Below, one piece after another: positions 4,469 through 47,254 of a stretch of DNA of 64,000 bases (the first letter of the stretch is position 1; each line of letters begins with the position of its first letter). The notes below the pieces were generated by a model. The model ran no database searches, was not told the DNA's origin, and saw nothing but the letters and a program-made list of their open reading frames with translations. This stretch comes from Macrotrachela quadricornifera (Eukaryota; Rotifera; Eurotatoria; Philodinida; Philodinidae). The translations under genes and the position numbers were made by a program. The stretch covers positions 715,868 to 779,867 of the forward strand of contig JAJEKB010021384.1 in the NCBI GenBank assembly GCA_022393335.1, read 5' to 3'.

Positions 4469-6181
4469 TTACGGTGGATATAGATATTTGTGTATAAAGT
4501 CTTTAATAAAAAGAGAAGAAGAACGAAATATATCTTTCTGAGGTCCATGATCGCATAAGAAAGAGAAAAGATCTAGATTCGTATGATGAGCTTGCCGTGC
4601 CAAACGATTGGGAAATACACTATTCTTTCGAAATCCCATGGATTTATAGTAAGAACGAATTCTCTCTGGTGATGTCGCAATTAGATACGCCTCCCAAGTT
4701 TCTCTGTATGCAGACGCTTCAGGGGATACATTAAGGTGTTCTTTAAATCTCATCCAGTAGTCGTATAAATACTCAAGGAGCGCTCTCTCCCTAGTGAGAC
4801 TCAAAGTCGTAAAATCGTCCCACCCCCAAAGGCCGTATACAATTCTTAGACCTGTACAATAAACATGCTCTATATCTCTCCTTTGTTTTTCATTAAAATA
4901 AAACCACGTTGCGAATAACCAGATAAAGTGAGGAAGTGCGAACGCACAAAAAAGTTGTCTTCGAATTTTCCATTCTTGTAGCGGTATTTTTTTATATATC
5001 CTTTTCAGCGCAGCATAAACATTTCTTATCTTAGAAAGTCTTGATTTTATAAATATTCCCCAGCCAAGTTTTATACACAAAATGACTCCTAGATATTTGA
5101 AATAATTGACAAAGTCAATTTCTTGGCTTTCATAAAAAATCTTCGGATAGCTAGGAGAAACTATACTATGAACTAGCATCGCCTTTGTTTTGTCAACATT
5201 AACAGGCTGTATCGTATCTTTTGAAAACTTAGTTAACGCTTTCATAGCAATTTTCGCTTGTTCTTCTAGCCAATTAATGTTATGGGAAAACTTATTCTCC
5301 AAACAACCTTTTAAAATGAGAGCCAGATCGTCCGCGAATAAATGACAACAAAATTGAAGAAAATATTTAGGTAAAAAATGAATGTGTAAGCGAAAAAGAG
5401 TTGCAGCTAATACAGATCCTTGTGGTGCTCCAACAAAGATATTGATGGTTCGAGAGTTCGATTCACCATGATAAACAGCCATAGTTCGCCCTTGTAACCA
5501 TTGATAGATCCAACGGACAAGGGGAAGTGGCATTTCTAATTCAAGCAGAGTGGCTATTAATGCTGGATACCACATTCTATCAAACGCTGAAAGAAAATCA
5601 ATAAAAATAACTAAAGCCGGTCTATTATTTGCTGCAACAGTGAGTCTTAGGTCTTCTATAAGAGATAATATTCTTGTTTGCAGTCTTCTGTTTGTTGTAA
5701 AACCTGACTGTTCATCAACGAAAATATTTTTTTCTATGCACCAACTTGATATTTGGTCATGGATACACCTTTCAAACCATTTTCCAAGATTTGGAAGTAA
5801 AGAAATTGGTCTTAATCTATTTTTTTTAGGATATATCCCATCTTTAGAAAGACAAATTACTTTTGCATGTTTGCTAGCTTCAAAAACATTTCCTTTACTA
5901 GCACATTTATTGAAGAGAATAGCAATGATATTCATATATTCTATTGGAAGATTTTTTAACAGAAAAGCTGATGTTCCAAGGGTGTCTAAAGATTTCTTTG
6001 GTGAAAATTTTTTCCAGTTTTTATATATTTGAGTTATTGAAATTGAGCCGAGAGGAATATTAGGCAAATAAGAAATCTGCTTATATATATGGATGTATTT
6101 CATATGTATATCATTTGATGGATCGTGCACTGGAGTGGTAAAGTAACTCTCAAAAAAATCACCTAATTGATCTGTTATTTT
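4469..6181 (-). CDS. LINE ORF2, reverse transcriptase part (downstream of the MITE)
   Basis: This encodes the RT and C-terminal part of ORF2. Visible RT motifs in order are QSGFTTNRRLQTRIL (finger motif), IFIDFLSAFDRMW (catalytic Asp of motif A), GAPQGSVLAATLF (motif B), FADDLALIL (the catalytic FADD of motif C) and YFKYLGVIL (thumb side). All catalytic Asp residues are present. No RNase H is recognisable after the RT. The frame has no ATG of its own at the 5' side, because it is the continuation of the endonuclease ORF at 6796-8018. Removing the MITE and one 8-bp duplicate (622 bp) puts the two halves in the same frame. As it stands, the protein cannot be made in one piece. Confidence 0.9.
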   Translation of the reverse strand, partial: KITDQLGDFFESYFTTPVHDPSNDIHMKYIHIYKQISYLPNIPLGSISITQIYKNWKKFSPKKSLDTLGTSAFLLKNLPIEYMNIIAILFNKCASKGNVFEASKHAKVICLSKDGIYPKKNRLRPISLLPNLGKWFERCIHDQISSWCIEKNIFVDEQSGFTTNRRLQTRILSLIEDLRLTVAANNRPALVIFIDFLSAFDRMWYPALIATLLELEMPLPLVRWIYQWLQGRTMAVYHGESNSRTINIFVGAPQGSVLAATLFRLHIHFLPKYFLQFCCHLFADDLALILKGCLENKFSHNINWLEEQAKIAMKALTKFSKDTIQPVNVDKTKAMLVHSIVSPSYPKIFYESQEIDFVNYFKYLGVILCIKLGWGIFIKSRLSKIRNVYAALKRIYKKIPLQEWKIRRQLFCAFALPHFIWLFATWFYFNEKQRRDIEHVYCTGLRIVYGLWGWDDFTTLSLTRERALLEYLYDYWMRFKEHLNVSPEASAYRETWEAYLIATSPERIRSYYKSMGFRKNSVFPNRLARQAHHTNLDLFSFLCDHGPQKDIFRSSSLFIKDFIHKYLYPP

Positions 6182-6803
6182 TAGGGATGCACCAGTCCAG
6201 TTAACTGGGTACCCAGTGTCACTGGGTACCCCAGTTAACTGGGACCCAGTGTCACTGGGTATTTATTTTAACTGGATACATATTCAACTGGTTTATTATT
6301 TATAAAATCATCAGTAGTTTCCTTTGTGCTAGGTATCCATGAGTCCAGTTAACTGGGTGCCCAGTGACACTGGGTACCCAGTTAACTGGGTCCCAGTGTC
6401 ACTGGGTACCCAGTTAACTGGGTGTATATAGGATGTGTAAAAATATTTTTCCAGACGGGTAACACTATGATTTTAAATAGCATACATAAGGATTTTAATA
6501 CCAAATTAAAGTGTGTCAAAAATGGAATTTATTCATGCTAAATGTAGGGATGCACCAGTGAGTTAATAACTGATAAGTGGGTCCCAGTTAACTGGGGGTA
6601 CCCCAGTGTCACTGGGTACCCCAGTTATCACTGGGACCCAGTTAACTGNNNNNNNNNNCCCAGTTAACTGGGTACCCAGTGTCACTGGGACCCAGTTAAC
6701 TGGGTCCTCCAGTTAACTGGGTACCCAGTGACACTAGGTACCCCAGTTAACTGGGACCCAGTTACCAGTTATTAGCTGTCACTGGTGCATCCCTAGTTAT
6801 TTT
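6174..6803. mobile_element. hAT-type MITE (6182-6795) with 8-bp target duplications
   Basis: Terminal inverted repeats TAGGGATGCACCAGT (6182-6196) and its complement (6781-6795) are perfect over 15 bp. They are flanked by identical 8-bp copies of gttatttt (6174-6181 and 6796-6803), the target length of hAT transposases. There is no coding capacity. The interior is almost entirely two alternating short palindromes, CCCAGTTAACTGGG and CCCAGTGTCACTGGG. A third copy of the terminal sequence lies at 6545-6559, so part of the element may be a second, overlapping copy. It interrupts LINE ORF2. Confidence 0.92.
6649..6658. other. Assembly gap, 10 N
   Basis: Ten N bases lie inside the palindromic satellite of the MITE. 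The true number of repeat units is probably not resolved here. Confidence 1.
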
Positions 6804-8018
6804 TACTGAATCACTTTCAATATTTCCATTAACTACTAGTCCTCGAAAGGATGGAGAATATGAATGGAAAAAAGGACGGACAAAATGCCATATATTTTGA
6901 TTTTTTGAAAGAGACTCGAGATGCTTCTCACGTCTTGTTTGTTCATATTTTGCTCTTTCAGCGCAGAATACCTTTCTAATAGCTAAAAATTCTTTAAGAT
7001 GAAACAGAAAACTAGTCTTTCTATATTTTTTTCTTTTTCTATTCACAGATCGAGCAAGAGAAATAAGAAAAGGTGGCCAGGGTGGTTTGTATTTTTTAAG
7101 TGGAATATATTCGCTTGTTCTGTCCCACAAAGAAGCGAGGAAGAGGGAAAAAAGAGTGAAAAAGGTTTGCTCGTCAAAATTGTATACATATGAATTCCAA
7201 TGCATATATAAACAAGAAAGAATAAAAGTAAAAATTTTCCAATTCGTTTTTCGAAAAACACCCTTATCAGATATAGCTATAGAGGATGAGTATAAAACAG
7301 GAAAATGGTCAGCGTTTCCTTCATCTAGCACCTCACATTTCCATCCAGAACTATCGTTTGTCACCGCAAAATCAATGATGGACTCAGATTTTTTTGATGT
7401 GGGGATGGCAGAAAAAATTCCTTCACATCCATTTAATTCCATCCAATCTTTCAGTGCAAGACCACTAGTGTTGTTAGTGGAACACTTCCAATCACTATGT
7501 TTTGCATTATAATCACCAAAGATAAAAAATTTCTTATTCAAAAACTTTTCGAATTCGTGAAAGGGAGGCTTGGACTTAGGAGGAACGTACACTGCACCAA
7601 TAAGAATGGGAGAAAGTGCTACTTCGATTTCAATTAGGAGAAGGTTCTCGACCTTATGTATAACTTTCGACTTCAGTGAAGAATGTATTAATATTGCTAC
7701 TCCTCCAAAAGAATTCGTTCCTATTTGTGTATGCCAATAATAATTCGGCACGGAAGGCATTTTACGAATCAAAGATCCCACTCCGGTTAAGATTATAACA
7801 TGAGGAAGGTATGAAGAGAGTAAAATATCAAGATCTGACAAATGCGTACTCAAACATTCACAATTATATAAAACAATAAGAAGATTTTCTACTTCATTTT
7901 TTGGTCTAATCTTTTTCCACGATTCACACAGGTTGGAAATGGAAGTTTTTGTGTTCCACTCATTTAAGATGTTTAAAACCATTGTTTTTTCTTCAAAACT
8001 TCCATCAAACTTGTCCAC
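6796..8018 (-). CDS. LINE ORF2, APE-type endonuclease part (upstream of the MITE)
   Basis: This is the N-terminal endonuclease of ORF2. Motifs seen: an early N-C pair (LYNCECLS), a Y-x-P strand (GAVYVPPKSKP), the catalytic GDYNAKHSDW and the final DH motif (ADHFPVL). The motif that normally holds the metal-binding Glu (L-T-E-T type) reads ILTGVG, so that Glu appears lost. The frame can extend upstream of 8018 to about 8088 without a stop. It has no ATG near the start, so translation probably depends on ORF1 coupling or reinitiation. It runs into the MITE at 6795, which adds a few foreign codons before a stop near 6762. Confidence 0.88.
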
Positions 8019-8061
8019 TACAGAAGGAAAAACATAAGTCGGAACATACTTGAAATCAGGA

Positions 8062-8247
8062 CTATCTGTTCCCTGAAGAAAATATGGTTTTCATAGCTGA
8101 GTGATATAATTCCATTTGTTTATGCATGATAGTTGAATATTTCACCATTTCTCGTTGAAAAGAGTCTTTCAATTGTATTAGTTGAGCCATTGCTATTTCA
8201 TTTGCTTCCTTCATATTTTCTACATGTTTTTTTTTGTTCATCTCCAC
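8062..8247 (-). CDS. Likely C-terminal extension of LINE ORF1 in the +1 frame
   Basis: A coiled-coil-like, K/E/Q/M-rich stretch of about 55 residues overlaps the end of ORF1 in the +1 frame. The two frames meet at a run of nine A on the minus strand (8235-8227). It ends in TAG at 8062, inside the first codons of the ORF2 frame, which is the usual spacing between LINE ORFs. It could be reached by +1 slippage on A9, or ORF1 may simply have gained or lost an A in this copy. It could also be a chance frame; its heptad-like composition argues against that. Confidence 0.5.
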   Translation of the reverse strand: MEMNKKKHVENMKEANEIAMAQLIQLKDSFQREMVKYSTIMHKQMELYHSAMKTIFSSGNR

Positions 8248-9841
8248 ATATACATTTCACATAGTCACATAGTACTTTATTCGTTGTTGATAAATTGACA
8301 GTGCATTCCATATTCGTTGCAATGACTTGTTGCATAGAGACTAAACAGTCATTTTGTGCACGAACTTGCTGTTGTAGAATGAGCCATCCTTTTTGAACTT
8401 TTTCAATTTGCTGTTGATATATATTATTAATTTGATTTTTTTCTTCATCAAAATCTTTCTTCACCTTATTCAGTTCCTTCTCCAGTGATTTAATTGCTGA
8501 ATTCAAATATTCTTTTGCTAAAGATGTATTTTCTTCTTGTCGACTATCCCAGTAATTTTTTGTGGAAGAATGAAAAGAATTGGTTGTTGTAGTAACAGGA
8601 GGAGGAGCAGAATATCCACGTTGAGAAGTTAAAATTCGATCACGTTCATTTTGTTTTCGACAGTCAATTGGGATAAACATTCGTATATGTGCTGGTAGTT
8701 TATCTGTATTCTGCTTTAATTTATTCAAGAGTCCTTTTCGAAAATTAACTATTGTTGGACACTTGTAATCTGTTGATATATGGTTACCACTACAGTGATG
8801 ACATTGAATATGACAAGCAGAATGATCTTCACCATTTGCTTTATCTTTACCACAACGCCGGCATATAGCACAAGAAACTTGGCAATCTTTTTTAGTATGA
8901 CCGGGTGAATTACAATTCATGCAGATGAGAATCTTAGGTGGAGGTAAGTATTCATCGACTTCGAATATTAGACCTTGAATTCCAATTTTACCTTCATATA
9001 AAATCTTCTCATATTCTTCTTGCTGTTTGAAAATTGCACGAATATGACGAGCATTTGAGCGAGTTGTTCCCATCATTTCATTCACCATAAATAATGAAGA
9101 GAATCGAATTTTCATATCATTAAATATATCATCTTTTGAAATTGTTAAAGGAACAAATTTAATTATAACAGAGTTTTGTGAAGGTAGTTGTTTTGGTGGT
9201 TCAAGTTTTATTTGTACATTACCAATAACAGGTGGATAATGATTATTGTCACACAAATACATGTAAAAATCAATATCATCTGTAACACCACAAAAAATAT
9301 TTCCATCGTCCTTTAACCACCATTGATCAAAGCCAATTAAGTCTTTATGACGAGGATATTCTTTTCGAAAATTTGATTCAATATGTTTCATAAATTCTTT
9401 TATAAATTTAATACCAGATTCTTTCGATCGAAGAGAAGGATTACAATGCACCTTGATCATAGGAAGACGAGTATCAACACAATGTGCTATAGCTTGTTCA
9501 GAAATCTGAATTTGTTCAGACTGCTGTCCATCAACTATAGATTCTTGTGCTTGATACTGTTGTTGAAGATTTCTATTAAAGAAAGTTTTTCCTTTTCGAG
9601 TTTCAATTGTTCGTTGGTATTTAGGTGAAGGATGGATTATTTGATCGCTGTTAATCGTATCATTTTCATCATCGTCATCTGATCGAGTTCGTGAACTTTT
9701 TCTTCGAAGTTGTTCTACACGATTTTTCATATTTCTTAAACTAACTATATCTTCCTTTGGATCTTGGAATTCACTTGTCGTTGCATTCATATCATTAAGT
9801 ACCTTGCTTTGAGTAGAAATATTTGTAAGTTGGTCGAACAT
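8198..9841 (-). CDS. LINE ORF1, gag-like nucleic-acid-binding protein
   Basis: 547 codons, first in the element. The N-terminal third is polar and low-complexity. The middle holds a hydrophobic fold of the type found between basic N-termini and zinc knuckles in Jockey ORF1 proteins. A zinc knuckle CMNCNSPGHTKKDC (CX2CX4HX4C) follows near residue 307, then two more Cys/His clusters including CHHCSGNHISTDYKC. The C-terminal 100 residues are coiled-coil-like. Such proteins coat the LINE RNA and form the RNP. The ATG is at 9841, after a 157-nt leader. The frame stops at 8198 after crossing an A9 tract where it may shift to the 8062-8247 frame. Confidence 0.9.
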   Translation of the reverse strand: MFDQLTNISTQSKVLNDMNATTSEFQDPKEDIVSLRNMKNRVEQLRRKSSRTRSDDDDENDTINSDQIIHPSPKYQRTIETRKGKTFFNRNLQQQYQAQESIVDGQQSEQIQISEQAIAHCVDTRLPMIKVHCNPSLRSKESGIKFIKEFMKHIESNFRKEYPRHKDLIGFDQWWLKDDGNIFCGVTDDIDFYMYLCDNNHYPPVIGNVQIKLEPPKQLPSQNSVIIKFVPLTISKDDIFNDMKIRFSSLFMVNEMMGTTRSNARHIRAIFKQQEEYEKILYEGKIGIQGLIFEVDEYLPPPKILICMNCNSPGHTKKDCQVSCAICRRCGKDKANGEDHSACHIQCHHCSGNHISTDYKCPTIVNFRKGLLNKLKQNTDKLPAHIRMFIPIDCRKQNERDRILTSQRGYSAPPPVTTTTNSFHSSTKNYWDSRQEENTSLAKEYLNSAIKSLEKELNKVKKDFDEEKNQINNIYQQQIEKVQKGWLILQQQVRAQNDCLVSMQQVIATNMECTVNLSTTNKVLCDYVKCICGDEQKKTCRKYEGSK

Positions 9842-16070: not shown

Positions 16071-16086
16071 GGAGTGTGAGCAGTCG

Positions 16087-16405
16087 ACAAGATACTCCAA
16101 TGTGCTTTCTTTCTATTATCAGCTGATAACCTAACCGTATTCGGGCCAAATTATCGCATTCATCGCTAAATTACTGAATTTAAAATATTAGCTGTTGATG
16201 AGTGTCTTATACGAAATTATTCAGTCCTTTGAGAGCAATGAAACACAACTTTGGGGACAAAATAATTTCGTATAAGATTTCCATTAACAGTGAATATTTT
16301 AGATTTAGTGCTTTAGCGATGAGGGTGATAATTTGGCTCGAATACGGTTGGGTTATTAACTGATAATAGAAAGAAAACAAATGAGGGTATCATGTCGAAT
16401 GCTTA
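16087..16405. repeat. Foldback element (palindrome) of about 320 bp
   Basis: The left arm from about 16087 ('gtcgacaagatactcc', 'ctttctttctattatcagct', 'ccgtattcgggccaaattat') pairs with the right arm ending about 16405 in reverse order. The central loop is near 16215-16245. The arms are about 85-90% alike by eye. No coding capacity. Confidence 0.75.
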
Positions 16406-17148: not shown

Positions 17149-17793
17149 TCAGAATTCAATTCTACTGCCAAGCGATTGAAATTTAGTACACACATCTTGC
17201 CCTATTTGATTGCTACCAACTTTCAGCTTGGTTAGTGTCTATGTGAAAAGATAACATACATAAGAAGTAACATGGTGAAGTAAAGCGGCTCACATTGTTA
17301 ATTCCTAAGGCTTCAGCGAAATGCTGTACACCCGTAGCGGTGATTTGATTGGATTGAAAATATAATGTCGTGAGTGTCTGTAAAATGAGGGATGTAATTA
17401 TATTAGAGACGAAGAGAGAATGAGAAATACCGTATTGTGTCGTAAGGTTTCAGCAATATGTTGTGCCCCTGCAGCATTTATCGAATTGGATCGAAGATCC
17501 AATGTGGTGAGTGTCTGTGGAAATGTTTAATAAAACTATAAGGAAGATGAAGATACAAAAGATAGCACTTTATTGCTTCGTAAAGCGTCAGCAAGTAATT
17601 GCGCCCCTTTATCCACAATTTGATTGTTGTACAGGTTCAGAGTGGTGAGCGTCTATGTTAAATGAGAAATATAAAAATCTCACACATAGAGAGAAAGAAT
17701 GAGTATCACCGTATTATTTCCCAAGGCATCGGCGAGATATTGTGCCCCAACAGCAGTGATTTGACAGCCTTGAAGATCTAATGTTGTCAGTGT
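17149..17793 (-). CDS. LRR exon cluster of the TRIM-LRR gene (4 full repeats and terminal repeat)
   Basis: Five exons, four of exactly 84 nt (28 codons), each starting TLTTL and ending near N-N-T, for example TLTTLDLQGCQITAVGAQYL then ADALGNNT. They are separated by introns of 57, 54, 53 and 55 nt with GT-AG ends. The last exon (17238-17149) starts TLTKLKVGSNQIGQD, loses the repeat pattern and ends in TGA. The L-x-x-L-x-L-x-x-N-x-I pattern with 28-residue length is the RNI class seen in ribonuclease inhibitor, NOD/NLRC and RanGAP. Confidence 0.92.
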
Positions 17794-20700
17794 CTGTGTG
17801 AAATGAGGACAGATACATTTAAAGCGTGCCTAGTTATTTTCTCGTCATTTCTCTTTTTGATCTAAAGTAACGAATATTCAGATCTCCCTGCTGCATAATG
17901 TCATCAATCGATGACTTTTCTTCAAAACTTGTTAATTTTACGTCAGCGGTTCAAAAAGCGATATGGAAGAATGATAAAGAAAAAAACAGAAGAATCACCT
18001 TATCGTTCCTGATTCGGATGGCAGCTCCAGCAGNNNNNNNNNNNNNNNNNNNNNNNNNNNNNNNNNNNNNNNNNNNNNNNNNNNNNNNNNNNNNNNNNNN
18101 NNNNNNNNNNNNNNNNNNNNNNNNNNNNNNNNNNNNNNNNNNNNNNNNNNNNNNNNNNNNNNNNNNNNNNNNNNNNNNNNNNNNNNNNNNNNNNNNNNNN
18201 NNNNNNNNNNNNNNNNNNNNNNNNNNNNNNNNNNNNNNNNNNNNNNNNNNNNNNNNNNNNNNNNNNNNNNNNNNNNNNNNNNNNNNNNNNNNNNNNNNNN
18301 NNNNNNNNNNNNNNNNNNNNNNNNNNNNNNNNNNNNNNNNNNNNNNNNNNNNNNNNNNNNNNNNNNNNNNNNNNNNNNNNNNNNNNNNNNNNNNNNNNNN
18401 NNNNNNNNNNNNNNNNNNNNNNNNNNNNNNNNNAGCTAAAAAGACCATTTTTCAATCACACGTTTTATTAGAGAAAAATTCACTATAGAAATCCAAACAG
18501 GACTTCTCGGTCACCCTTTATCCTTTTAAACCGTTCTTTGGTAAACTTAGGCAAGTGTTTGTGAATTGTTAATAGCGGACATACCTATGTAATGTTTTCA
18601 GTGTTTGTAGACCCTTCTGGAATGCATGAACGGAATAAACCTTTAGGCGAAAAGTTTTGTATTCTATGATTGTATTTAAAACATGCAGTAGTAAGCCTTT
18701 AATCTAAGGTTTTCCTCCATCCATATGCTTAAAGAAGGGTTTAGAAACACAGAAAACAGTACAAGGGTATATGGATTAGCAACTGATCACAGACTGTTAT
18801 CAAGGTTTATGAAAACAAAGATAGTTTAGAAGAATAGATTAGACTCATAAACTTAAGAAGGGATTATTTAATAGTAATAAAATGGATAGTAAGGATTTAT
18901 TATTCTACGCTTATTTTTATAGTGGTGTTTAAAGGTGGAATACTGTTTTTTGTGACCAAGCTGTTGATTAAAAGAGTTTTGGAAAGGCGGAAGGGATGGA
19001 CTGCTGTTCAGTTCGTCTTGGTTGATATAATGAACAAAATTGAGAAAAAGTTTTAAGATTCGTAGAGTAATGGATTTGGGTTGGACTCAATCTTTTTTTA
19101 AATTTCTATTGTGTCTAAAACACCTGTGTGAAGGAGACAGCTGAATCAGGATCTATGGCGAGTGTTATTTTAGGATCGATAGTGCTGAAAAGTGAAGGAT
19201 TTCTGCAATCTGATAGACCAACCAAAATATATGCCATGTCGCGTGACGAAATTTGCTGAGAAGGATAAAAAACAGTTGTTTTCAAGTTTTGTGTTACGTT
19301 ACATGAGCGGAGGACTCTATATTAAGTTGAAATATGCACTAAAGATTGATTTTTCGAAGAACACGTGAATTATACAGTTAGACTCTTGTTCAGAGAGACG
19401 TGTGAGTCGAAAATGGCATAGGTTGTATCGTCAATAATATCTAAAAATGTTTTTCTATATTTGTCATTTTGAGAAGGAATAAACCTTCGCTTCACATTAA
19501 CATCTTACTTTTCGACTCATTGCATTTACCACCATTCTACGTTATAGCAATTTCAAAAACGTCGACAAGCTATTGCTTTTTGAATGCTGATAAAGTTGTT
19601 AGTATCTCAATTCCAAAATCACAATTTAGAACATTGGCACAATATACTGTAAGGCTAAAGCTGTAGATGAAAAACTTTGGAGCCTCTTTTTGCTAATGAA
19701 AGTTCCATAATTTCAGTTATCGATGTTTTGCTAAGTAAAATATGAAGTCTCATTTGAAAATCAGCTCAATCTATCAACAGAAAAGCAAACTGATGGACGT
19801 GACAATCCTCGTCGCTGCAACAACTAAAAGCATCATCATCACAAAAAACGACCACAGCAAAAGAATGAAGAATGACAAAACACAAACACTCTTTTGGCAC
19901 GTGTACGTACTAAGAACTTCGAGAAATATATCTTAAAAAAGATGCGAACATCACATCAAAGAACTGTGGAAAAGTAGACCGGCGAATACAAAGACAAAAT
20001 AATGAGGATTGAGCAGCAGAACTATGACCGGTAGCGATAAACATTTGGATCGATAGATTTCTTACCGGTCAGTCTAGAATTTTTTGCGTGTTCACATGCT
20101 TGTTTTATTTCAAAACCTGACCAAAAACATGTTTTTTTCTGCATATCAAATAGTCTTTTTCTGATGTTGAAGATTAGTTCTATGAGGGGACATACATCAT
20201 ACTATTCTGTTAAGTGAAAAATCATCATAGTGCGCTTACTTTATTTTATTAACACGCTTAAGTATGAGCTTATGTTTCCAAAACAAAATAAAGTAATTAT
20301 GTAGCAAAGTAATCTGTCGTAGATTTATTTGCATATCACACTGTTTATCTATATCTATAAAGAAGAATGTTTGCCTGTTTGTCTGTTCGCTATGCATTCA
20401 TTCCCTGTAAGAGCTACGACCACCAAACTTTCCACGATGTTTCTTTAGGTCCCAGGGAAGGTCGACATGGTCATTGGGGTGTGGATGTGTGGGTGAGGGT
20501 TCGGGTGAAATCTCACCCAGATAGTACTGTAATAGCTAACATTACGAAACTTTTCACGGTGCTGTTCTGAGTGCAGAAGTAGCTTTAAAAAACACTGTTA
20601 TCATTAATAGGAGTAGTACGGGGATGTTTGGGTGAAATTTCACCCAAGCCATATGGCAATGAAATTTTCGTCAACTTTTTAGAAATTTAGCGAATTTGTT

Positions 20701-23700
20701 ATGATTCTATGATTAATCATTTCGCATCAATGGTTCTTTGGTCTAAATGTGAAAATCGAAGGTTTCGAATAGGTTATAAGAGAAAAGTGTATACGAGTGT
20801 TTCCTTGATTCAAAACTATAGTTTATCCATTTGTTTTCTATGACTTACAGACACAACGTATTTGTTCTTTTTCTTGACTTACAACGATGATATATCTATA
20901 TACTCGAAGAAGAATATTTGTCTGTTCACTATGCATTCAGTCTTCGTAATAGCTAGCCTCACAAAACTTTCCACACTACTTCCTTTGCTGTTGAAGAAAA
21001 TTGACTTGAGGTTGGAGCTACCGAGTGCGGTGCGCGGAAGAGGCTGGGTGAAATTTCATCGCGATCAATACAGATCGAGATTCTGATGAGACTGTTCGCT
21101 ATGTATTTAGTCATCGTGAGAGATAGCGTCACGAAACTATTCGCATCAGTTCCTTGAGTGCTGAGAAAAGTCGGCAGAGTGATTGGGGGTGAGAAAGGGA
21201 GGTGTGCGTGAAACTTCATCCAAGTCGTAAGAGACCGTGATTTTATTAATTTTCTAATCAAATGACGCGTTTCAATGCAAACTTGAGAGTGATCGTGTTC
21301 AAAATGGATGCGAGTGAGGATGTCAGCTCTAGCCCGATGAGAAGAGTTCCACTGAAGATGCCTGATGCACGGTGGGAAAAGCTCTGTCGCAGAGGTTCCA
21401 GGTATAGTGAAACAAATCCTATGAAAGAGATATTACGCACGGCGAGAAGAGTCCCATGACGAATACCTAATGCATAGCAGGAACAATCCTGCTAAAGATG
21501 CCTGACGCATACCGGTAAAAGTCCTGTCTAGAGATTTCAGGTGTGACGGGAAAATTTCTGTTGCAGATGGCTCAGCCACAGCAGGGAGCAGTCCTGTAAA
21601 AGACGTGTTATGTACAGCAGAAAAATTTGGGTGGAAGATGCAAAACTTTAACCATATTCTCTTTTCATCGGGTACCTCCGCTAGTTGAATATATTTCTCA
21701 CAGGCATAAGAGATAACAAACTGAATTTAATATTAGAAACAGTTTAAATATACAACTATTTATTAGTGTAGGTGTATAATAAATAGTTAACGAATGTGGA
21801 AAGCTGATACAGAATTTTTAGTCCTATGCAGTATTCTGTTCACTAACAGGTACCATGTTGGAGAAAGCTTATGGAAATAAATAGTAAAAGCATTAAGCAA
21901 AGATTGCTACAGCGTAACTGTGGTAATTGAAAGGGTGATATGACTAATCGAGAGAATGATTTGGTTGTCATAGGACCAGAAAAAAGAAGAATGACTCATG
22001 GCGATACGGTCGATTCAGTTCTGACTCGCCATTTCTAGCGGTACCGGTACGGAAAATCCCTACAGGTTCGAACTCTGCTACAAGACACATAAAACAAAAG
22101 GACAAGGAGAAAAGCTCATGGCTAGAATCATGCCAGTTAAAGATGTTAACTCACCGTATTTTCTTGTAGTGCTTGGACCAAAATCTTCACATCCGGATCG
22201 GTTAATCTTTGGCTACTTAAATTGAGCGTCGTATTTATTTGATTGTCAACAATGCGTTTTTCGAGCTGAGGATTGCGATATATTGAATCTTCGACTGTTC
22301 GACCACCATTACAGATGTTTTCTTTAAGTGTTTGCAACTGATCGAGCCCTTCTAGATGAGAGTCACTTTTGTTGGGCGGTTTCAGTCTACGCAAATCCTC
22401 CAGTGTCTTGTCCAGGTAGCCGATAAATTCAGCTTTAGCTTTCAGTAGTCTTGTATTGTCTTTGGTCCAGAGAAGTATCGCAAAATTTGCATTTTGCATG
22501 TCCAAACTTTGCTGTTCTTTTTGTAGCCGAGTTTGATAGTCTTTATATTGTGTCTTCTGGTCTGTTTCGATTGAAAGAATCTGTTGTAGTACTGTTTTTT
22601 CATGTTTATCGATGATCTGGCGCAATGATGCCATGGTTTCAGCCACTTTTTTTTTGTTTAATTCAATGTTATTATCAACATCAGTTCCCATTGCGTCCAG
22701 TTGATGCATTTTATCATTCAAAGAGGCTTGGATATTCTTTAGGTCAGCTTCTACCTAGACGATAGAAAAGAGTAATGATATAAATCAGATCTATGTCAAC
22801 TATAATGATTGAGATAAATACTGACTTTTGTTTTTAGTTTTTGTGCAATCTCATCTATCAAGGCATATGTGTGCTCTTTGTGTTGAAACAATACACAATC
22901 ACGGCAAACAAGCGTGTCACATGCTTGACACCAATATTTAAGTTTCTCGTCCGGATGTGTTCCACATGGGGTCATTTCCGGGGGCTTCTCGCTGATGGAT
23001 ACGGGCCGATGGCTTTGTAATGCGCGTGATGCATGAATAGCCTGAGAACATTCTAAACAGTAGCTGTTGACGCATTCTTCACACCAAAATGCAGCAGGTG
23101 TGGCCGAATGACAATTTGAACACTGAGTTGAGTCTGAAATTCAAATGAGTATGAACAGAGCAGCAGCAGAGCCATGATGATAAGAAGACAAAAAAGCAAG
23201 ACACTTATATCTTCATTCAAAAGGAAAACAGTGAAGGTGTTTCGTTCATTACAATAATCGTTATGCTAATATTAGTAATCTAAATTGACTTATGAGCAAA
23301 TCAAAGTCTATGGAATTCAGAGTAGATCAAATGGTATGCTCATGTGATTCTCAAATTTGATATTTATTAGCCATCTTCATACAAAATTAAATAAATCTCA
23401 TTCATACAATTTAGATCTCTCTTTCGATGAGTAGTAAGGCCTCGGCGGGACTCACTAATGACTCGACTTACCAAACAAGTTGACTGTGTCACTCACGAGT
23501 TGGTTGAGAGGTAACGAGTCGATTTGATCTTTTGCAATGTTAGTCTCATCACGTAGAGGACACGTGAACTGACCGTTGTTAGAAGAAGCCACTTTTTTGA
23601 TACAACGAAAACAGTAAGTATGCCAGCAAGGCAATAGGCGTGGATCAACAAAGCGCTCATGACAAATTGCACAATTAATAAAGTTTTTAATTGTGCCTAT

Positions 23701-23721
23701 GCCTATGTTGTTAGATGCCAT
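17149..23721 (-). CDS. TRIM-type RING / B-box / coiled-coil protein with NLR-type LRR array
   Basis: A multi-exon gene, start ATG at 23721, stop TGA at 17151-17149. Coding exons by splice sites and phase: 23721-23472 (RING), 23133-22826 (two B-boxes), 22754-22155 (coiled coil and first LRR), a partial LRR exon ending at 17999 at the edge of the assembly gap, then 17793-17710, 17652-17569, 17514-17431, 17377-17294 and terminal 17238-17149. Exon 1 ends in phase 1; all later junctions are phase 0. The RBCC order is that of TRIM E3 ubiquitin ligases, which usually end in SPRY, NHL or similar. Here the C-terminus is a ribonuclease-inhibitor-type LRR fan, as in NLR immune sensors. Likely a cytosolic ligand-recognising ubiquitin ligase; the ligand is unknown. 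Exons hidden in the 400-N gap are probable. Confidence 0.88.
17999..18033 (-). CDS. Partial LRR exon cut by the assembly gap
   Basis: Reading out of the gap on the minus strand gives AGAAIRIRNDK followed by a GTGATT donor at 17998, in phase 0 like the other LRR exons. It aligns to the second half of an LRR unit but is about three residues shorter, so it is either degenerate or slightly misassembled. Confidence 0.55.
18034..18433. other. Assembly gap, 400 N
   Basis: A run of 400 N inside the LRR half of the TRIM-LRR gene. The round length suggests an estimated gap size. Repetitive LRR exons are a likely reason for the break. Confidence 1.
20350..21250. repeat. Diverged repeat, three copies
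   Basis: A block containing 'tctgttcgctatgcattca', 'aaactttccac' and 'gggtgaaat.tca' with Asp-like 'gtgagg' tails appears near 20385, 20925 and 21088. Copies are diverged and of unequal length. Probably part of a minisatellite-bearing mobile element. Confidence 0.55.
21310..21650. repeat. Minisatellite, about 35-bp units, 8-9 copies
   Basis: Units around 'agatgcctgatgcacggtgg' followed by 'aaaagtcctgt' repeat with about 35 bp spacing from 21310 to 21650 with 20-35% divergence. The 60-65 aa frames on both strands here are by-products. Confidence 0.7.
22155..22754 (-). CDS. Coiled-coil exon with first LRR of the TRIM-LRR gene
   Basis: 600 nt, 200 codons, acceptor TCTAG at 22756-22755, donor ACG|GTGAGT at 22155/22154. 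Residues about 187-340 of the protein are heptad-rich (K/E/Q/L) as in the TRIM coiled coil that makes antiparallel dimers. The last 28 residues (TTLNLSSQRLTDPDVKILVQ then ALQENT) form the first LRR unit, so the fusion of coiled coil to LRR lies inside a single exon and does not depend on gene-model joining. Confidence 0.92.
22826..23133 (-). CDS. Double B-box exon of the TRIM-LRR gene
   Basis: 308 nt between a TTTCAG acceptor (23134) and a GTCAGT donor (22825). Two zinc-binding B-boxes are visible: QCSNCHSATPAAFWCEEC followed by YCLEC and two His (B-box 1), and CGTHPDEKLKYWCQACDTLV then CRDC and H-x2-H (B-box 2). This exon is too interrupted in other frames to appear as a long open frame and is recognised from its splice sites and Cys/His pattern. 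Confidence 0.9.
23472..23721 (-). CDS. RING exon of the TRIM-LRR gene
   Basis: 250 nt from ATG (23721) to donor TTTG|GTAAGT (23471). RING ligands: C17, C20, C32, H34, C37, C40, C54; the expected eighth ligand (CPxC) is CPLR, with Asp directly after. The RING would recruit an E2 enzyme. Loss of the last Cys could weaken zinc binding, or the Asp could take its place as in some RING variants. The LPLNQLV helix after the RING is typical of TRIM proteins. Confidence 0.9.
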
Positions 23722-24805: not shown

Positions 24806-26300
24806 AAGATTTCATATTTGAAGATCAGCTAATATTATGTAAATTGGCAATATCATATCCCTAGAAGATACATAGTGAATACAAGATCTACCTCTGTAGC
24901 ATATAATTCTACAAAAATAAATCACATAAAGTACCACTATATCTTGACTAGAAATTAATATTGCACAATTACAGACACGATAACAGTGTAAACGTGGTGA
25001 TAATAATATTGATGATTGTTTTTCGTTCTTCATAGAACAAAAAATAGTTTAGTTCGCTTTGTATTATACAGGCCTAATTTATGTATATGGAGAACGAAAC
25101 AAACTCATCAATATTGTTATCACCACGTTTACACTGTTATAGTGTCTGTATTTGTGCAATATTAATTTCTAGTCAAGATATAGTGGTACTTTATGCGATT
25201 TATTTTTGTAGAATTATATGCTACAGAGATAGATCTTGTATTCACTATGTATCTTCTAGGGGTATGATATTGCCATTTTATATAATACTTAGGGCACTCC
25301 AAAAGTAGTGAGCCAGATATCATACTTTCCTATAGACCGATTGGAAAAATTTTCTTTTTTATGAGCAGATAGATCGTCTTTTGTTCTATCTTTCTATGTT
25401 ATTTGATCACTATTCAACTGGTCTTATAATAATAAAAATTCGATAAGAACTGTTTTTGTTAAAAATCAGCCGGTAGCATCGAGATCATAATGGGCATGAA
25501 ACTAAAATAACGCTGTGCTTTTGTATTGCATTTTATCATCACTTAATACATTGTATCGAAGAAACAAAATATACCAGAAGATGCAGCGTGAAACGCTCTA
25601 CAATTTATAAAGGACTGTTTATTGTATAGTTGCACTTTTTATTTTCAAAATGAACAAAACTCTGAGCGATCAAATTTTGATGTTGTGACAGCGAGATTAT
25701 TTATTGGTAAAGGATGAATTCGGTTTTATCTATCTCATCTTTTTATAGTTGTTCTTTGTAAATTATAGAGTTTTACACGCTGCTTCTTATAGTGTATTTT
25801 GTTTTTTAAATAAAACATATGAAGTAAGAAAAAAGATGAGATAGGGAAAATTGAATGCATCTTTTACTAAAAAACAATCTCGTTTCTGCAACGTTGAAAT
25901 TTCGTTGTTCAGAGTTTTATTCATTCTGAAATCAAAAAAAAATAACTATAGAATATACCATCCTTTATAAATTGTAGAGCTTTTCACGCTGCATCTTCTG
26001 GTATATTTTGTTTCTTTAATACACTGTGTTAAATGATAATAAAGTAGAATGTAAAAGTGCCACACGCATTATGATCTACTGCTACCAGCTGATTTTCAAC
26101 AAAAACAGTTTTTATCGAATTTTTATTATTATAAGACTAGTTGAATAGTGATCAAATAACATAGAAAGATAGAACAAAAGACGCTCTATCTGCTGATAAA
26201 AAAGAAAACCTTTCCAATCAGTCTATAGGAAAGTACGATATCAGGCTCACTACTTTTGGATTGCCCTAAGTATTAGCTGATCTTCAAATATGAAAACTTG
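24805..26300. mobile_element. Outer foldback element, interrupted by an inner element
   Basis: The arm 24811-25030 pairs with 25080-25290 in inverse orientation (both contain 'tcaatattgttatcaccac' and 'gatattgccaat'-type ends). The last part of the right arm, 'agtattagctgatcttcaaa', is displaced to 26269-26288 by the inner element at 25292-26266. Putting the two right-arm parts together restores the complement of 24811-24850. The matching 73-75 aa frames on opposite strands are simply the two arms. Confidence 0.8.
25290..26268. mobile_element. Inner Tc1/mariner-like foldback MITE (25292-26266), TA target duplication
   Basis: Ends GGGCACTCCAAAAGTAGTGA (25292) and the complement ending GGATTGCCC (26266), flanked by TA at 25290-25291 and 26267-26268. 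The arms pair along nearly their whole length (975 bp, centre about 25780). It contains two inverted copies of the recurrent 'gatgcagc' unit. No transposase. TA duplication and the GGGCA-type ends point to the IS630/Tc1/mariner superfamily. Confidence 0.8.
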
Positions 26301-41336: not shown

Positions 41337-44021
41337 TCAATATAGAAATTCGTCATGTTTTCTTGTGATATCTTGACGTATTTTAATAACAGCTATTTGT
41401 TCCCAAATAATAGGATATTGTCTAATAGTTTTTATTTTATCATAAATAACTTGTAGATTATTATCCGAATGATTCAATCTCATTGCATCCATTTTTCGTT
41501 TATAATCATGTATAATATTCTTAAGTAATTGAACTAATTGTAAATTAAAATAATTAGATTGTACTCTTTCCAATATATTATTTTCTTCATCTAACATTCG
41601 AGTTAAACCAATAAGAAATGGATCATTTTTAGTAAATCGAGCAATATATTTAAGAAAATAAGCAAATTCAATAATGGCTTGAAAAAGTGTTTCAAACATA
41701 TTCGTCATTTCGTCAAAATTTGATGAATTAGTCGAAGATTTATATTCTAATATATATTCAATCGGATAATGTTGATCAGATATACATGAACATGTTTGAC
41801 ATTTATTTTTTATAATATGTATAACATTTGGTATAATCCAAAATTTTCCAATTTGAATAGGATTAGGTTTGCATAATAAACATTGAAGATGTAAATAATC
41901 AAGAGATTTTGGAGATAATTCAATAAATATATTTGATAAATCTGATGTATATAAAAGAATATTTCGAAGAATATTTCTTATTGTTTCTAATAATGGACGA
42001 ATCATATAAATAATTTCAAATTGAATTTCTTTTATTAATTTCCATTTATTTTCCATATGATATGGAATTATATTTTTACAAATATAATTAATTAAACGAT
42101 TGGATTCTTTTAATGAATTCGACCAACTATTTTCATAATTATCAAAATAAAATAGATTATCTTTTTTAAAAAATGTATTATCAGAATTAAAAAGACATGT
42201 ATGAGAATTAGTAAAACAAAAGATAAAATTTTCTCGAATATTTTCTCCAAAATGATCAATTAATTGAATAATACACGATTGATAAAATTTATTTAATTCT
42301 TCAATATTTGATTTAAATAAAAAACAAATTGCATTTATATGTGATAAATTATTAATATATTCTAAAATATGTTGAATATTATAATTATCATATTCAATAC
42401 CTCTTGTATCACCAAAATCAGGTGTATCAATAAAACGAAATTTTTTTCCATTATATTCTTTTAAATGAAATAAATAAGATTGACTAAATGAAATAGATTT
42501 ATTTGATTTAGCTATTTGAAATGATTCAAAAATAAATGAATTAATAAAAGTTGATTTACCAACACCTATTTCACCTAAGAGAAGAATATTAATTGTATCA
42601 ATATTTAAAGATAATGAAATATTTTTTTCGTTTAATGGTAATATTATCATTTCATCTAATTGAAATAAACTATAAGAAAAATCTGCATAGATTAAACGTA
42701 AAGTATTATTAATTTCATATTCTTTTATTAATTTATCACATAATTCAATTAATTGTTCAGGATTATTTGTATTTAAAGTATCATTTGTACAAAGAATACG
42801 ATCATATTGTTTATCGAGAATTAATTTTCTTTCAATAGTTTCTAAAGTATCATTTTTATCGACATTAAAATATTTAAATTGTTCGAGATTATTAATTAAA
42901 TATGCTTTATCTTCGAGATTTTTAAGATTTTCTATTAAATTATTAATAGTGTTTTCTAATAGAGAATTATGAAGTGATGTTTTAAATATGGATAATTCTA
43001 TTTGACCATGACGAACTTCAATGAATAATTTTGATAATCGTTCGATTTCATTTAGAAAATTTTTATTGATATTTAAATATTGTTTATGTGCATCATAAAG
43101 TTGTTCTTTAAGATATTCAGATAATAATTTTGGTAGATTTTCATTAATTGATATTTCAATAGTTTTTATTTTATATGAAAATTCTAATAAATGAATTTTT
43201 ATTTGATTAATAAATGTAGAAGGTATAGAAATAAATTTAGTAGATGATCCTGAATATTTTGGATATAACCATTTTATAGATCGAAGAGTATATCTCATTG
43301 GATAATATATAGTAGCATTTTTTATTTGATCTATATAACGACAAACATCCCATAATGTGGTTAATCGAGTTAATTCAGATATATTTGAATAGATTTTTGT
43401 ATCAAGAATTGTTTCAAGTAAAATTTTATCATCAGTTTCTAATGTCCAAATACTTGGATAATTTGATAATACGGTTCGAAATTTTTGAAGTATATTATCG
43501 ATTTTTGTAATAGTTTCAACTTCAGTTGGTAATTGTAAAATGGCAACTAGATGAATGCCCCAATTAATACCAGTAATAATATGAGTAGCATTTGTTTGAA
43601 TCTTTAATGAATGGATTAATTGTTGAATCTCGGTTAGATTAGTAAGTGATTCTTCACCATTTTTATAAGAATAATGAAAAATACGAGTAAATTCATTTAT
43701 TGGATGAAAATAATCAACAATTGAAGTTATGTTAGATTTTGGTGCTAAATTTAACAGTATACTTAATTGTAAATCTTCTTCAATATTAACTAATTGAGAA
43801 AGATCTATTGATTTATTTATTTCGCCCTTGATAACTTCACATTGAACAGGACCTAAAGATCGATTTAAATTTTCTATAGTTTTTAATTTTAATTGTCCAA
43901 GAACACAATCTCTATAACCATCATAAAGTGAACCAAGGCGTCCAGAAGAATCGACTGCAAAACGTTTTATTTCATTTGAAATTAAATTTTGATTAATTTC
44001 CTGTGTGTTAGATTTTGCCAT
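41337..44021 (-). CDS. Large GTPase with stonustoxin-like N-terminal region
   Basis: 894 codons, one exon. Residues 1-170 (around SSGRLGSLYDGYRD and THIITGINWG) resemble the N-terminal region of the stonustoxin/SNTX-related family, known from fish venoms but also from many non-venom proteins. Residues 250-470 are helical. A P-loop GTPase domain follows: Walker A GEIGVGKST (483-491), Walker B/G3 DTPDFGDTRG (532-541), and FTNS (603-606) where the G4 TKxD is expected. This is nearest to the AIG1/septin-like TRAFAC class. The C-terminal part has paired Cys (CLLC and CQTCSC) that may bind zinc. No signal peptide, so a cytosolic role, perhaps defence- or membrane-related, is more likely than a toxin. 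It is strongly A/T-rich in third positions. Confidence 0.8.
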   Translation of the reverse strand: MAKSNTQEINQNLISNEIKRFAVDSSGRLGSLYDGYRDCVLGQLKLKTIENLNRSLGPVQCEVIKGEINKSIDLSQLVNIEEDLQLSILLNLAPKSNITSIVDYFHPINEFTRIFHYSYKNGEESLTNLTEIQQLIHSLKIQTNATHIITGINWGIHLVAILQLPTEVETITKIDNILQKFRTVLSNYPSIWTLETDDKILLETILDTKIYSNISELTRLTTLWDVCRYIDQIKNATIYYPMRYTLRSIKWLYPKYSGSSTKFISIPSTFINQIKIHLLEFSYKIKTIEISINENLPKLLSEYLKEQLYDAHKQYLNINKNFLNEIERLSKLFIEVRHGQIELSIFKTSLHNSLLENTINNLIENLKNLEDKAYLINNLEQFKYFNVDKNDTLETIERKLILDKQYDRILCTNDTLNTNNPEQLIELCDKLIKEYEINNTLRLIYADFSYSLFQLDEMIILPLNEKNISLSLNIDTINILLLGEIGVGKSTFINSFIFESFQIAKSNKSISFSQSYLFHLKEYNGKKFRFIDTPDFGDTRGIEYDNYNIQHILEYINNLSHINAICFLFKSNIEELNKFYQSCIIQLIDHFGENIRENFIFCFTNSHTCLFNSDNTFFKKDNLFYFDNYENSWSNSLKESNRLINYICKNIIPYHMENKWKLIKEIQFEIIYMIRPLLETIRNILRNILLYTSDLSNIFIELSPKSLDYLHLQCLLCKPNPIQIGKFWIIPNVIHIIKNKCQTCSCISDQHYPIEYILEYKSSTNSSNFDEMTNMFETLFQAIIEFAYFLKYIARFTKNDPFLIGLTRMLDEENNILERVQSNYFNLQLVQLLKNIIHDYKRKMDAMRLNHSDNNLQVIYDKIKTIRQYPIIWEQIAVIKIRQDITRKHDEFLY

Positions 44022-44081
44022 TTGGTAAATACTGTACGCTAAAATTCAGATCAGTATAAATCATTTTTGTAATTACAATAC

Positions 44082-46372: not shown

Positions 46373-47254
46373 TTATGGTTGTTGAGATTGAACTATTTCC
46401 TTATATTGTTTTACAACTTGATAAGATCTATTATCTAATGATCCAATATTATTATCATCTTTTCTCGTCGAAAAAAGATACCAATGTATGAAACCAACAA
46501 AAAATCCGCCACCTAAAATATTTCCAAGTGTAACCGGTATTAATACACGTAAAATATATTTTTCAATAGATAACTTAGCACCAAGAATCATACCCATTTG
46601 AACTGTAAACATATTAGCAATTGAATGTTCATATCCAACAGTAACAAATAACCAAACAGGTAAATAAACAGAAATTATTTTTGAATTTAAATCACGTGCA
46701 CTTAATCCCATCCAAAATGCAAGACATGCAAGCCAATTACCAGCAATACCTTTTAAAAATAATTCATGCCATTTACTATTACCTTTTATTTCAGCTATTT
46801 TTATAATAAATGAACGATAAGGTTCATCAGAAAGAAGATTAACATGATAAACAAATATATATTGAAAAAATAGACAACCAATTAAATTTCCAAAAAAAGT
46901 TATTATCCAACAATAAATTAAATTTAACCATGTTGTTTTTCTATTTAATGTTGATATTGTTAATATCATTGTATTACCAGTAAATAAATCAGTACTACTA
47001 AGAAAAACTAAAATAATACCGACAGGAAATACACCTGCTTGAATCATTTTTTGTATACCTGATCCAACTATTTCAGATAATCGAACACTTCCACCACCAA
47101 CAATTACAAGAAAAAGACCACCAAATGATAATAAAATACCCGCTAAAAATGATTTTATTATTAAATAATCAATTCTTTCTTTCATTTTTTTAACTCCAAT
47201 AAATGTTATTATATCGATTGTTTCATGAACATTATAAGCATCATTTAGCGACAT
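46373..47254 (-). CDS. Formate/nitrite transporter (FNT) family channel
   Basis: 293 codons, one exon. Six hydrophobic segments fit the FNT fold. Signatures: the first re-entrant motif FLSSTDLFTGN (85-94), LKGIAGNWL (168-176) with the conserved Lys and Asn, and GYEHSIANMF (207-216) with the central His that lines the pore in FocA. FNT proteins form pentamers passing formate, nitrite, lactate or hydrosulfide with protons. They are common in bacteria, archaea, fungi and protists and rare in animals, so horizontal acquisition is possible. Codon use is as AT-rich as its neighbours, so if transferred it has been ameliorated. The substrate cannot be read from the sequence. N-terminal 30 residues and the polar C-tail are cytosolic by analogy. 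Confidence 0.92.
   Translation of the reverse strand: MSLNDAYNVHETIDIITFIGVKKMKERIDYLIIKSFLAGILLSFGGLFLVIVGGGSVRLSEIVGSGIQKMIQAGVFPVGIILVFLSSTDLFTGNTMILTISTLNRKTTWLNLIYCWIITFFGNLIGCLFFQYIFVYHVNLLSDEPYRSFIIKIAEIKGNSKWHELFLKGIAGNWLACLAFWMGLSARDLNSKIISVYLPVWLFVTVGYEHSIANMFTVQMGMILGAKLSIEKYILRVLIPVTLGNILGGGFFVGFIHWYLFSTRKDDNNIGSLDNRSYQVVKQYKEIVQSQQP

What the first reader, a model, noticed from the sequence alone, without database searches (positions are those of the whole stretch)
17149..23721. TRIM-type E3 ligase fused to an NLR-type LRR array
Seen: RING, two B-boxes and a coiled coil in three exons with matching phases, then RNI-class LRR exons on the same strand. The first LRR is encoded in the same exon as the coiled coil (22155-22754), so the fusion is not an artefact of joining two genes. 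Known: described TRIM classes end in SPRY, NHL, FN3, PHD-bromo, MATH, ARF, filamin or TM; LRR is not a standard TRIM C-terminus, whereas 28-residue RNI LRRs are the sensor part of NLR immune proteins. Inference: a ubiquitin ligase whose target choice is set by an NLR-like sensor, possibly part of an expanded recognition repertoire in this animal.
Basis: partly seen in the sequence, partly recalled or inferred. Interest (0 to 1): 0.82.

Follow-up and report, generated by a model that had tools for sequence, protein, structure and literature searches.

The report
TRIM-type protein with leucine-rich-repeat tail
This animal genome carries a small family of genes in which the front half of a TRIM ubiquitin-ligase protein appears joined to a stack of leucine-rich repeats like those of immune sensors; the combination looks real from gene structure and I found no description of it, but no transcript or activity has been shown.

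Summary
The fusion holds at the level of gene structure. In the window, RING, two B-boxes and a TRIM-type coiled coil lie in three exons; the third ends, exactly at its splice donor, with a 28-residue LRR-like unit.

A second, gap-free copy in the same genome (C4716; 94.9% identical DNA over 3.6 kb) has the whole order: TRIM exons, a 4.6 kb intron, 21 LRR exons of 84 bp in phase 0 and the same last exon, a 1003-residue model. Three 705-bp blocks of four LRR exons lie in tandem there. Fourteen further loci share the TRIM front end (one without a RING match); in 12 of these LRR exons follow within 1.5 kb, six of them through introns of 48-69 bp.

dN/dS of 0.14-0.31 argues for real proteins. The RING has a conserved Asp in place of its last Cys. 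"NLR-type" is too strong: the repeats are ribonuclease-inhibitor class and the model has no NACHT. RNA evidence is missing; ligase activity and an immune role are inferred.

The parts
23472..23721 (-). Exon 1: start codon and RING finger (C3HC3D: Asp in place of the last Cys)
22826..23133 (-). Exon 2: two B-boxes
22155..22754 (-). Exon 3: TRIM-type coiled coil, ending exactly at the donor with a 28-residue LRR-like cap (22238-22155)
18434..22154 (-). Long intron (assembled part); no LRR exon found in it
18034..18433 (.). Assembly gap of 400 N; the C4716 copy has 3.45 kb here with 16 whole LRR exons and most of a 17th
17999..18033 (-). Last 35 bp of an LRR-type exon (...AGAAIRIRNDK) cut by the gap; same as the end of the fourth exon of the tandem block in the copy
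17710..17793 (-). LRR exon, 84 bp, phase 0
17569..17652 (-). LRR exon, 84 bp, phase 0
17431..17514 (-). LRR exon, 84 bp, phase 0
17294..17377 (-). LRR exon, 84 bp, phase 0
17149..17238 (-). Terminal exon: last LRR-like unit and stop codon

Best explanation
A TRIM-family protein whose C-terminal recognition domain is an RNI-class LRR array. The RING would recruit an E2~ubiquitin, the B-boxes and antiparallel coiled coil would dimerise or oligomerise it, and the LRR array, started by a cap unit at the end of the coiled-coil exon, would bind the target that is then ubiquitylated or restricted. SHOWN from sequence: domain order, exon phases, recurrence of the arrangement in paralogues, coding constraint, tandem growth of the LRR array in one copy. 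INFERRED: splicing into one mRNA, E3 activity, target binding by the LRRs, any immune role.
Confidence: 0.72

Rival explanations
1. Two neighbouring genes: a TRIM gene ending shortly after exon 3 and a separate LRR gene on the same strand.
For: Assembly gap and 4.1-4.6 kb interval; read-through stop VS* at the exon 3 donor; in-frame ATG two codons before the first LRR exon of the copy.
Against: The cap unit and phase-0 donor at the end of exon 3; six paralogues with 48-69 bp between the coiled-coil exon and the first LRR exon; collinear gap-free copy.
Confidence: 0.08
2. TRIM-LRR is a real protein but not an active ligase: a scaffold or decoy in which the diverged RING only dimerises, and the LRRs bind partners (pseudoligase).
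For: Asp in place of the eighth RING ligand, followed in most rows by Gly (Glu in the window) and not by a basic residue; pseudoligases are known among human TRIMs (PMC11992055, passages seen).
Against: The Asp is invariant in 17 of 17 rows, as expected of a substitute zinc ligand; Pfam RING models are passed.
Confidence: 0.25
3. A housekeeping E3 whose LRR array binds an endogenous substrate, with no role in immunity (as F-box/LRR proteins do in SCF ligases; recalled).
For: dN/dS below 1 in TRIM and LRR parts; RNI LRRs serve many non-immune roles (list).
Against: Tandem near-identical LRR blocks and differing arrays among loci suggest change of the binding part.
Confidence: 0.4

Closest known systems
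TRIM family, group 1 (RING-B1-B2-CC; e.g. TRIM2/3, TRIM28/KAP1, TRIM56)
   Same: Order RING, two B-boxes, coiled coil; best solved relatives of the front end are TRIM2, KAP1 and TRIM3, TRIM56 further down; coiled coil resembles MG53, TRIM25, KAP1.
   Different: C-terminal domain is an LRR array, which is not named in the passages I saw on TRIM C-terminal domains; last RING ligand is Asp.
NLR proteins (NACHT-LRR; e.g. NOD2, NLRPs, zebrafish NLR-B30.2)
   Same: RNI-class LRRs, here 28 residues and one repeat per exon; zebrafish NLR LRRs are each on single exons (PMC4852459, passages).
   Different: No NACHT domain in the 1003-residue model; N-terminal half is TRIM.
finTRIM and NLR-B30.2 of teleosts
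   Same: Exon shuffling between TRIM and NLR families has been proposed there for the B30.2 exon (PMC2657112, passages).
   Different: There the shared part is B30.2; here it is an LRR array.
F-box/LRR (FBXL) and cullin-2 LRR substrate receptors; LRSAM1; bacterial LRR-type E3 effectors (all recalled)
   Same: Work-alikes: LRRs choose the target of a ubiquitin ligase.
   Different: Different catalytic or adaptor modules; no RING-B-box-coiled-coil.

Membership tests
TRIM family | RING finger at the N-terminus | tested here: met
   Pfam zf-RING_UBOX 37.7 bits and zf-C3HC4 35.1, both over cut-off; in LRR-class loci a RING match in 15 of 16 (L014 has none; partial at the contig end in L019 and L020)
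TRIM family | One or two B-boxes after the RING | tested here: met
   zf-B_box 48 bits, ANCHR-like_BBOX 45.7 bits; B-box match in 16 of 16 LRR-class loci
TRIM family | Long antiparallel coiled coil of TRIM fold | tested here: met
   Helices 2-97 and 100-123; TRIM coiled coils lead the fold matches, with modest scores; Pfam TRIM_CC below cut-off; dimerisation not tested
TRIM family | Canonical C3HC4 zinc ligands | tested here: not met
   C3HC3 plus Asp at C-x3-D in 17 of 17 rows. I hold C3HC4 to be usual in TRIM RINGs, not part of the family's definition (recalled)
TRIM family | A C-terminal domain of one of the described subclasses (I-XI) | tested here: not met
   After the coiled coil Pfam finds LRR families; DUF6944 (33.7 of 32 bits) and PQQ_syn_pqqF_N_2 (29.6 of 27) also pass narrowly over the repeats, with no stretch passing alone, and are taken as chance; subclass scheme from PMC11992055 (passages)
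TRIM family | Ubiquitin ligase activity | not testable with these tools
   needs biochemistry
NLR family | NACHT nucleotide-binding domain | tested here: not met
   no NACHT in the 1003-residue model of the copy
NLR family | C-terminal LRRs of RNI class | tested here: met
   LRR_6 296.9 bits; solved relatives include NOD2, ribonuclease inhibitor and NLRPs, but also axonemal LRR proteins

The most novel reading that the evidence does not exclude
A NACHT-free recognition system: TRIM front ends joined to cap-plus-LRR cassettes with one repeat per exon, whose arrays grow by tandem duplication of multi-exon blocks (here 705 bp, four repeats), so that ubiquitin-ligase targeting is re-specified by changing the number and kind of LRR exons, much as NLR or lamprey-type repertoires change theirs. 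(Lowered from 0.25 in my draft: LRR exons were found near only 1 of 11 cap units outside TRIM loci, so a genome-wide cassette pool is weakly supported.)
Probability: 0.2. Interest if true: 0.8.

Novelty: new variant of a known kind. Interest (0 to 1): 0.6.

Why it matters
TRIM proteins are sorted by their C-terminal domain, which is thought to pick the target; an LRR class would add a recognition module otherwise used by NLRs and other receptors, a counterpart to the B30.2 exon shared by TRIM and NLR genes in fish. The one-repeat-per-exon layout with near-identical tandem blocks gives a concrete, testable way in which an invertebrate could vary ligase targets between haplotypes.

Tried and rejected
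Two-gene artefact: considered seriously because of the N gap; weakened by the gap-free copy and the short-intron paralogues. Further LRR exons hidden in 22154-18434: none found. Detection of the cap by Pfam alone: no match. Relatives outside this genome: two searches of 5.8 billion predicted proteins gave the same two TRIM proteins (517 and 410 aa), neither with an LRR family listed; that collection looks thin for animals, so absence says little. PDB search with the exon 3 profile gave only unconvincing hits. Rfam: nothing in the window at gathering thresholds. Tandem Repeats Finder did not report the 705-bp blocks in L039 (its longest period is 500). Counts of B-box and NACHT genes in this genome were not obtained. 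The organism was not identified. What lies upstream of the cap units outside TRIM loci could not be named by eye from 1.5 kb, and no LRR exon was found within 1.5 kb after them except in L069 (1 of 11 loci; 0 of 4 second caps of TRIM loci). Paper searches without a description of TRIM-LRR: (listings with abstract starts; lists cut to 20 of 66, 20 of 3,378, 20 of 34 and 15 of 16; open-licence PMC only). PMC12220480 (Adineta vaga transcriptome; passages) names a leucine-rich repeat protein but no TRIM protein in the passages shown.
Full report
Observation. On the minus strand, exon 1 (23721-23472) encodes a RING, exon 2 (23133-22826) two B-boxes and exon 3 (22754-22155) a coiled coil; the joined frame is open for 386 codons with GT/AG borders. 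Pfam passes its cut-offs for RING and B-box, and sees the TRIM coiled-coil model below its cut-off. Exon 3 ends with INTTLNLSSQRLTDPDVKILVQALQENT directly at a phase-0 donor. Pfam does not score this unit, but a profile of 23 genomic and four window LRRs gives 8.4 bits against a shuffled mean of -42 (SD 10; 1 of 100,000 shuffles as high), far above every other stretch of the TRIM part (next best -17.6); ordinary LRR exons of the window score 58-71. Four LRR exons of exactly 84 bp and a terminal exon follow at 17793-17149, all in phase 0.

The weak spot. The piece at 18033-17999 is the last 35 bp of an exon. On the window alone, two genes would be possible.

The second copy. A search of the window's own genome (450 Mb, 5,695 contigs) with the exon 3 protein gave 36 matches. 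One, on contig C4716, is 98% identical; its 3.6 kb locus aligns with the window at 94.9%, introns included. Adjacent stretches were fetched. This copy has no N. It aligns with window 20617-18434 (96.6%) and 18033-16594 (94.2%) in the same order, and has 3.45 kb where the window has 400 N. Its gene model has three TRIM exons, an intron of 4,555 bp, 21 LRR exons of 84 bp in phase 0 and the same terminal exon: 1003 residues. Pfam finds RING, B-boxes and LRR_6 (296.9 bits) in it and no NACHT. Three consecutive blocks of 705 bp, four LRR exons each, are 98.3, 94.6 and 94.3% identical pairwise; the stretch after them is 66-67%. Such near-identical blocks are a natural reason for the assembly gap in the window (inference).

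Paralogues. Of the 36 matches, 30 loci (window and copy included) were examined for about 1.5 kb on each side; the six weakest were not. LRR exons follow the coiled-coil exon within 1.5 kb in 12 of 30. In the window and the C4716 copy they follow at a distance, and for L012 they were found about 4 kb on; L013, its near-copy, was not followed. In the other 14, whose coiled-coil match ends before the cap, none was seen within 1.5 kb. Of the 16 LRR-class loci, B-box and coiled-coil matches are present in 16, a RING match in 15. In 13 of 13 coiled-coil exons examined the cap unit is followed by a phase-0 GT donor; L016 and L020 (near-copies) and L011 (in-frame TGA) were left out. The cap's Leu, Leu, Leu, Asp, Leu are invariant over the 13. 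The intron to the first LRR exon is 48, 66, 66, 66, 69 and 69 bp in six loci, 130 bp in L014 and about 785 bp in L019 and L024. A tree of 27 of the 30 loci (three had no B-box match) and two outside proteins needs two changes of the LRR label (0 of 500 shuffles as low): the loci without LRR are one nested branch. If the root lies with the two outside proteins, the LRR tail was gained once and lost in that branch; long branches make the order unsure, and 'without LRR' means within 1.5 kb.

Constraint. dN/dS between the two copies is 0.26 (TRIM part) and 0.31 (last five LRR units); between tandem blocks 0.14-0.20. dN and dS are five to six times higher in the LRR part. There is no excess of replacement changes overall. 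Among 47 distinct LRR units from nine loci, entropy is highest at positions 8, 15, 26, 9, 6, 11, 19 and 4; 4, 6, 8, 9 and 11 lie on or next to the strand that forms the binding face of such repeats (recalled), 15, 19 and 26 do not. The units were picked by a framework pattern, so the low entropy of Leu and Asn is partly by construction.

Structure. AlphaFold2 on exon 3 with an alignment of 13 coiled-coil exons gives pLDDT 84, a 96-residue helix, a returning helix and a helix in the cap, with no strand called there. Foldseek's first hit is 4nqj, 'structure of coiled-coil domain' (a TRIM69 coiled coil, recalled), probability 0.91 but E 0.49. The second-look aligner lists MG53 8.7, a Toxoplasma conoid protein 8.3, TRIM25 8.2 and KAP1 8.1; 8 of the 13 listed rows with 130 or more aligned residues are TRIMs. 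These are modest scores for long helices. Solved relatives of the front end are TRIM2, KAP1, TRIM3 and, lower, TRIM56; of the LRRs, MOP84A, NOD2 (entry 5irl is 'uncharacterized protein' in the listing; NOD2 is recalled), ribonuclease inhibitor and NLRPs, along with axonemal proteins.

The RING. Cys17, 20, 32, 37, 40, 54 and His34 are invariant, and the eighth position is Asp58 at C-x3-D in 17 of 17 rows: the window, 14 loci and two proteins from outside this genome (loci without a clean RING match and some near-copies were left out). Invariance suggests a working zinc ligand; activity is untested. Human TRIM pseudoligases warn against assuming it (PMC11992055, passages).

A wider cassette? A search with a second cap unit found in L015 gave 67 matches at E up to 1. 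Some are the TRIM-LRR caps; others are second caps downstream in the same TRIM-LRR loci (on C4526, C898 and twice on C4716); others lie elsewhere, attached to coding I could not name. In L015 LRR exons follow the second cap. Outside TRIM loci, LRR exons were found within 1.5 kb in only 1 of 11 loci scanned (L069), and after the four other second caps in 0 of 4. So reuse of the cap is likely, but a common pool of cap-plus-LRR cassettes is weakly supported.

Literature. A TRIM survey of vertebrates, fly, worm and Ciona describes few kinds of C-terminal domain (PMC2533329, abstract and passages); fish finTRIM and NLR genes are thought to have shuffled a B30.2 exon (PMC2657112, passages); zebrafish NLR LRRs are each on single exons (PMC4852459, passages). 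Nine searches of the open-licence library showed no TRIM-LRR in their listings. Annotated animal proteomes were not available to me, so the architecture may already sit unremarked in databases.

Verdict. The fused gene family is very likely real (about 0.9); a ligase-type TRIM whose targets are set by the LRRs is the best reading (about 0.7 with the fusion); an immune role is plausible but open.

Noticed in passing
window 23548-23673 (RING) and loci: RING with Asp at C-x3-D in place of the last Cys, invariant in 17 of 17 rows including two outside proteins: a C3HC3D RING branch of TRIMs.
   Followed up: partly
L039 with L040 and L071 (C4716:4837336-4835222): Three tandem 705-bp blocks of four LRR exons, 94-98% identical, the fourth exon of each (NANGDC or NGAGDC ... 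IRNDK) departing from the LRR consensus.
   Followed up: partly
L048, L050, L053, L065 and L015 (3329-3469): A second cap unit (LNDQDMEIIAEEL or similar) about 1.2-1.7 kb after the first in TRIM-LRR loci, so one gene may carry two caps.
   Followed up: partly
L051, L059-L064, L066, L067, L069, L070: Cap units (LTDQDMEIVAYYLLRNNT or similar) with donors outside TRIM loci; upstream partner unknown; LRR exons within 1.5 kb only in L069.
   Followed up: partly
L011 (C4202:18715-19299): TRIM-LRR paralogue with an in-frame TGA in the coiled-coil exon and at least 11 LRR units: possible pseudogene or assembly error.
   Followed up: no
window 4472-9841, minus strand: Non-LTR retrotransposon remains: ORFs with zinc knuckles, endonuclease-like and reverse-transcriptase-like sequence (names recalled); a 10-N gap at 6649-6658.
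   Followed up: no
window 41340-44045, minus strand: 902-residue open frame with a GxxGxGKST nucleotide-binding motif, looks like a dynamin- or septin-type GTPase (recalled).
   Followed up: no
window 46376-47254, minus strand: 293-residue open frame resembling a formate/nitrite transporter (recalled); worth a test for horizontal transfer.
   Followed up: no
window 60122-61636, minus strand: Frames resembling a FLYWCH/MULE-type transposase, interrupted by stops (recalled).
   Followed up: no
window 24833-25287 and 16079-16403: Two inverted repeats (202 nt, 94%; 149 nt, 82%) on either side of the gene, like small palindromic transposable elements; the C4716 copy shows another in its long intron.
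   Followed up: no
L027 and L030, downstream of the coiled coil: About 170-residue cysteine-rich frame (CEGRPC.KCGKCRDWYY...) with a hydrophobic start beside non-LRR TRIM-like coiled coils.
   Followed up: no
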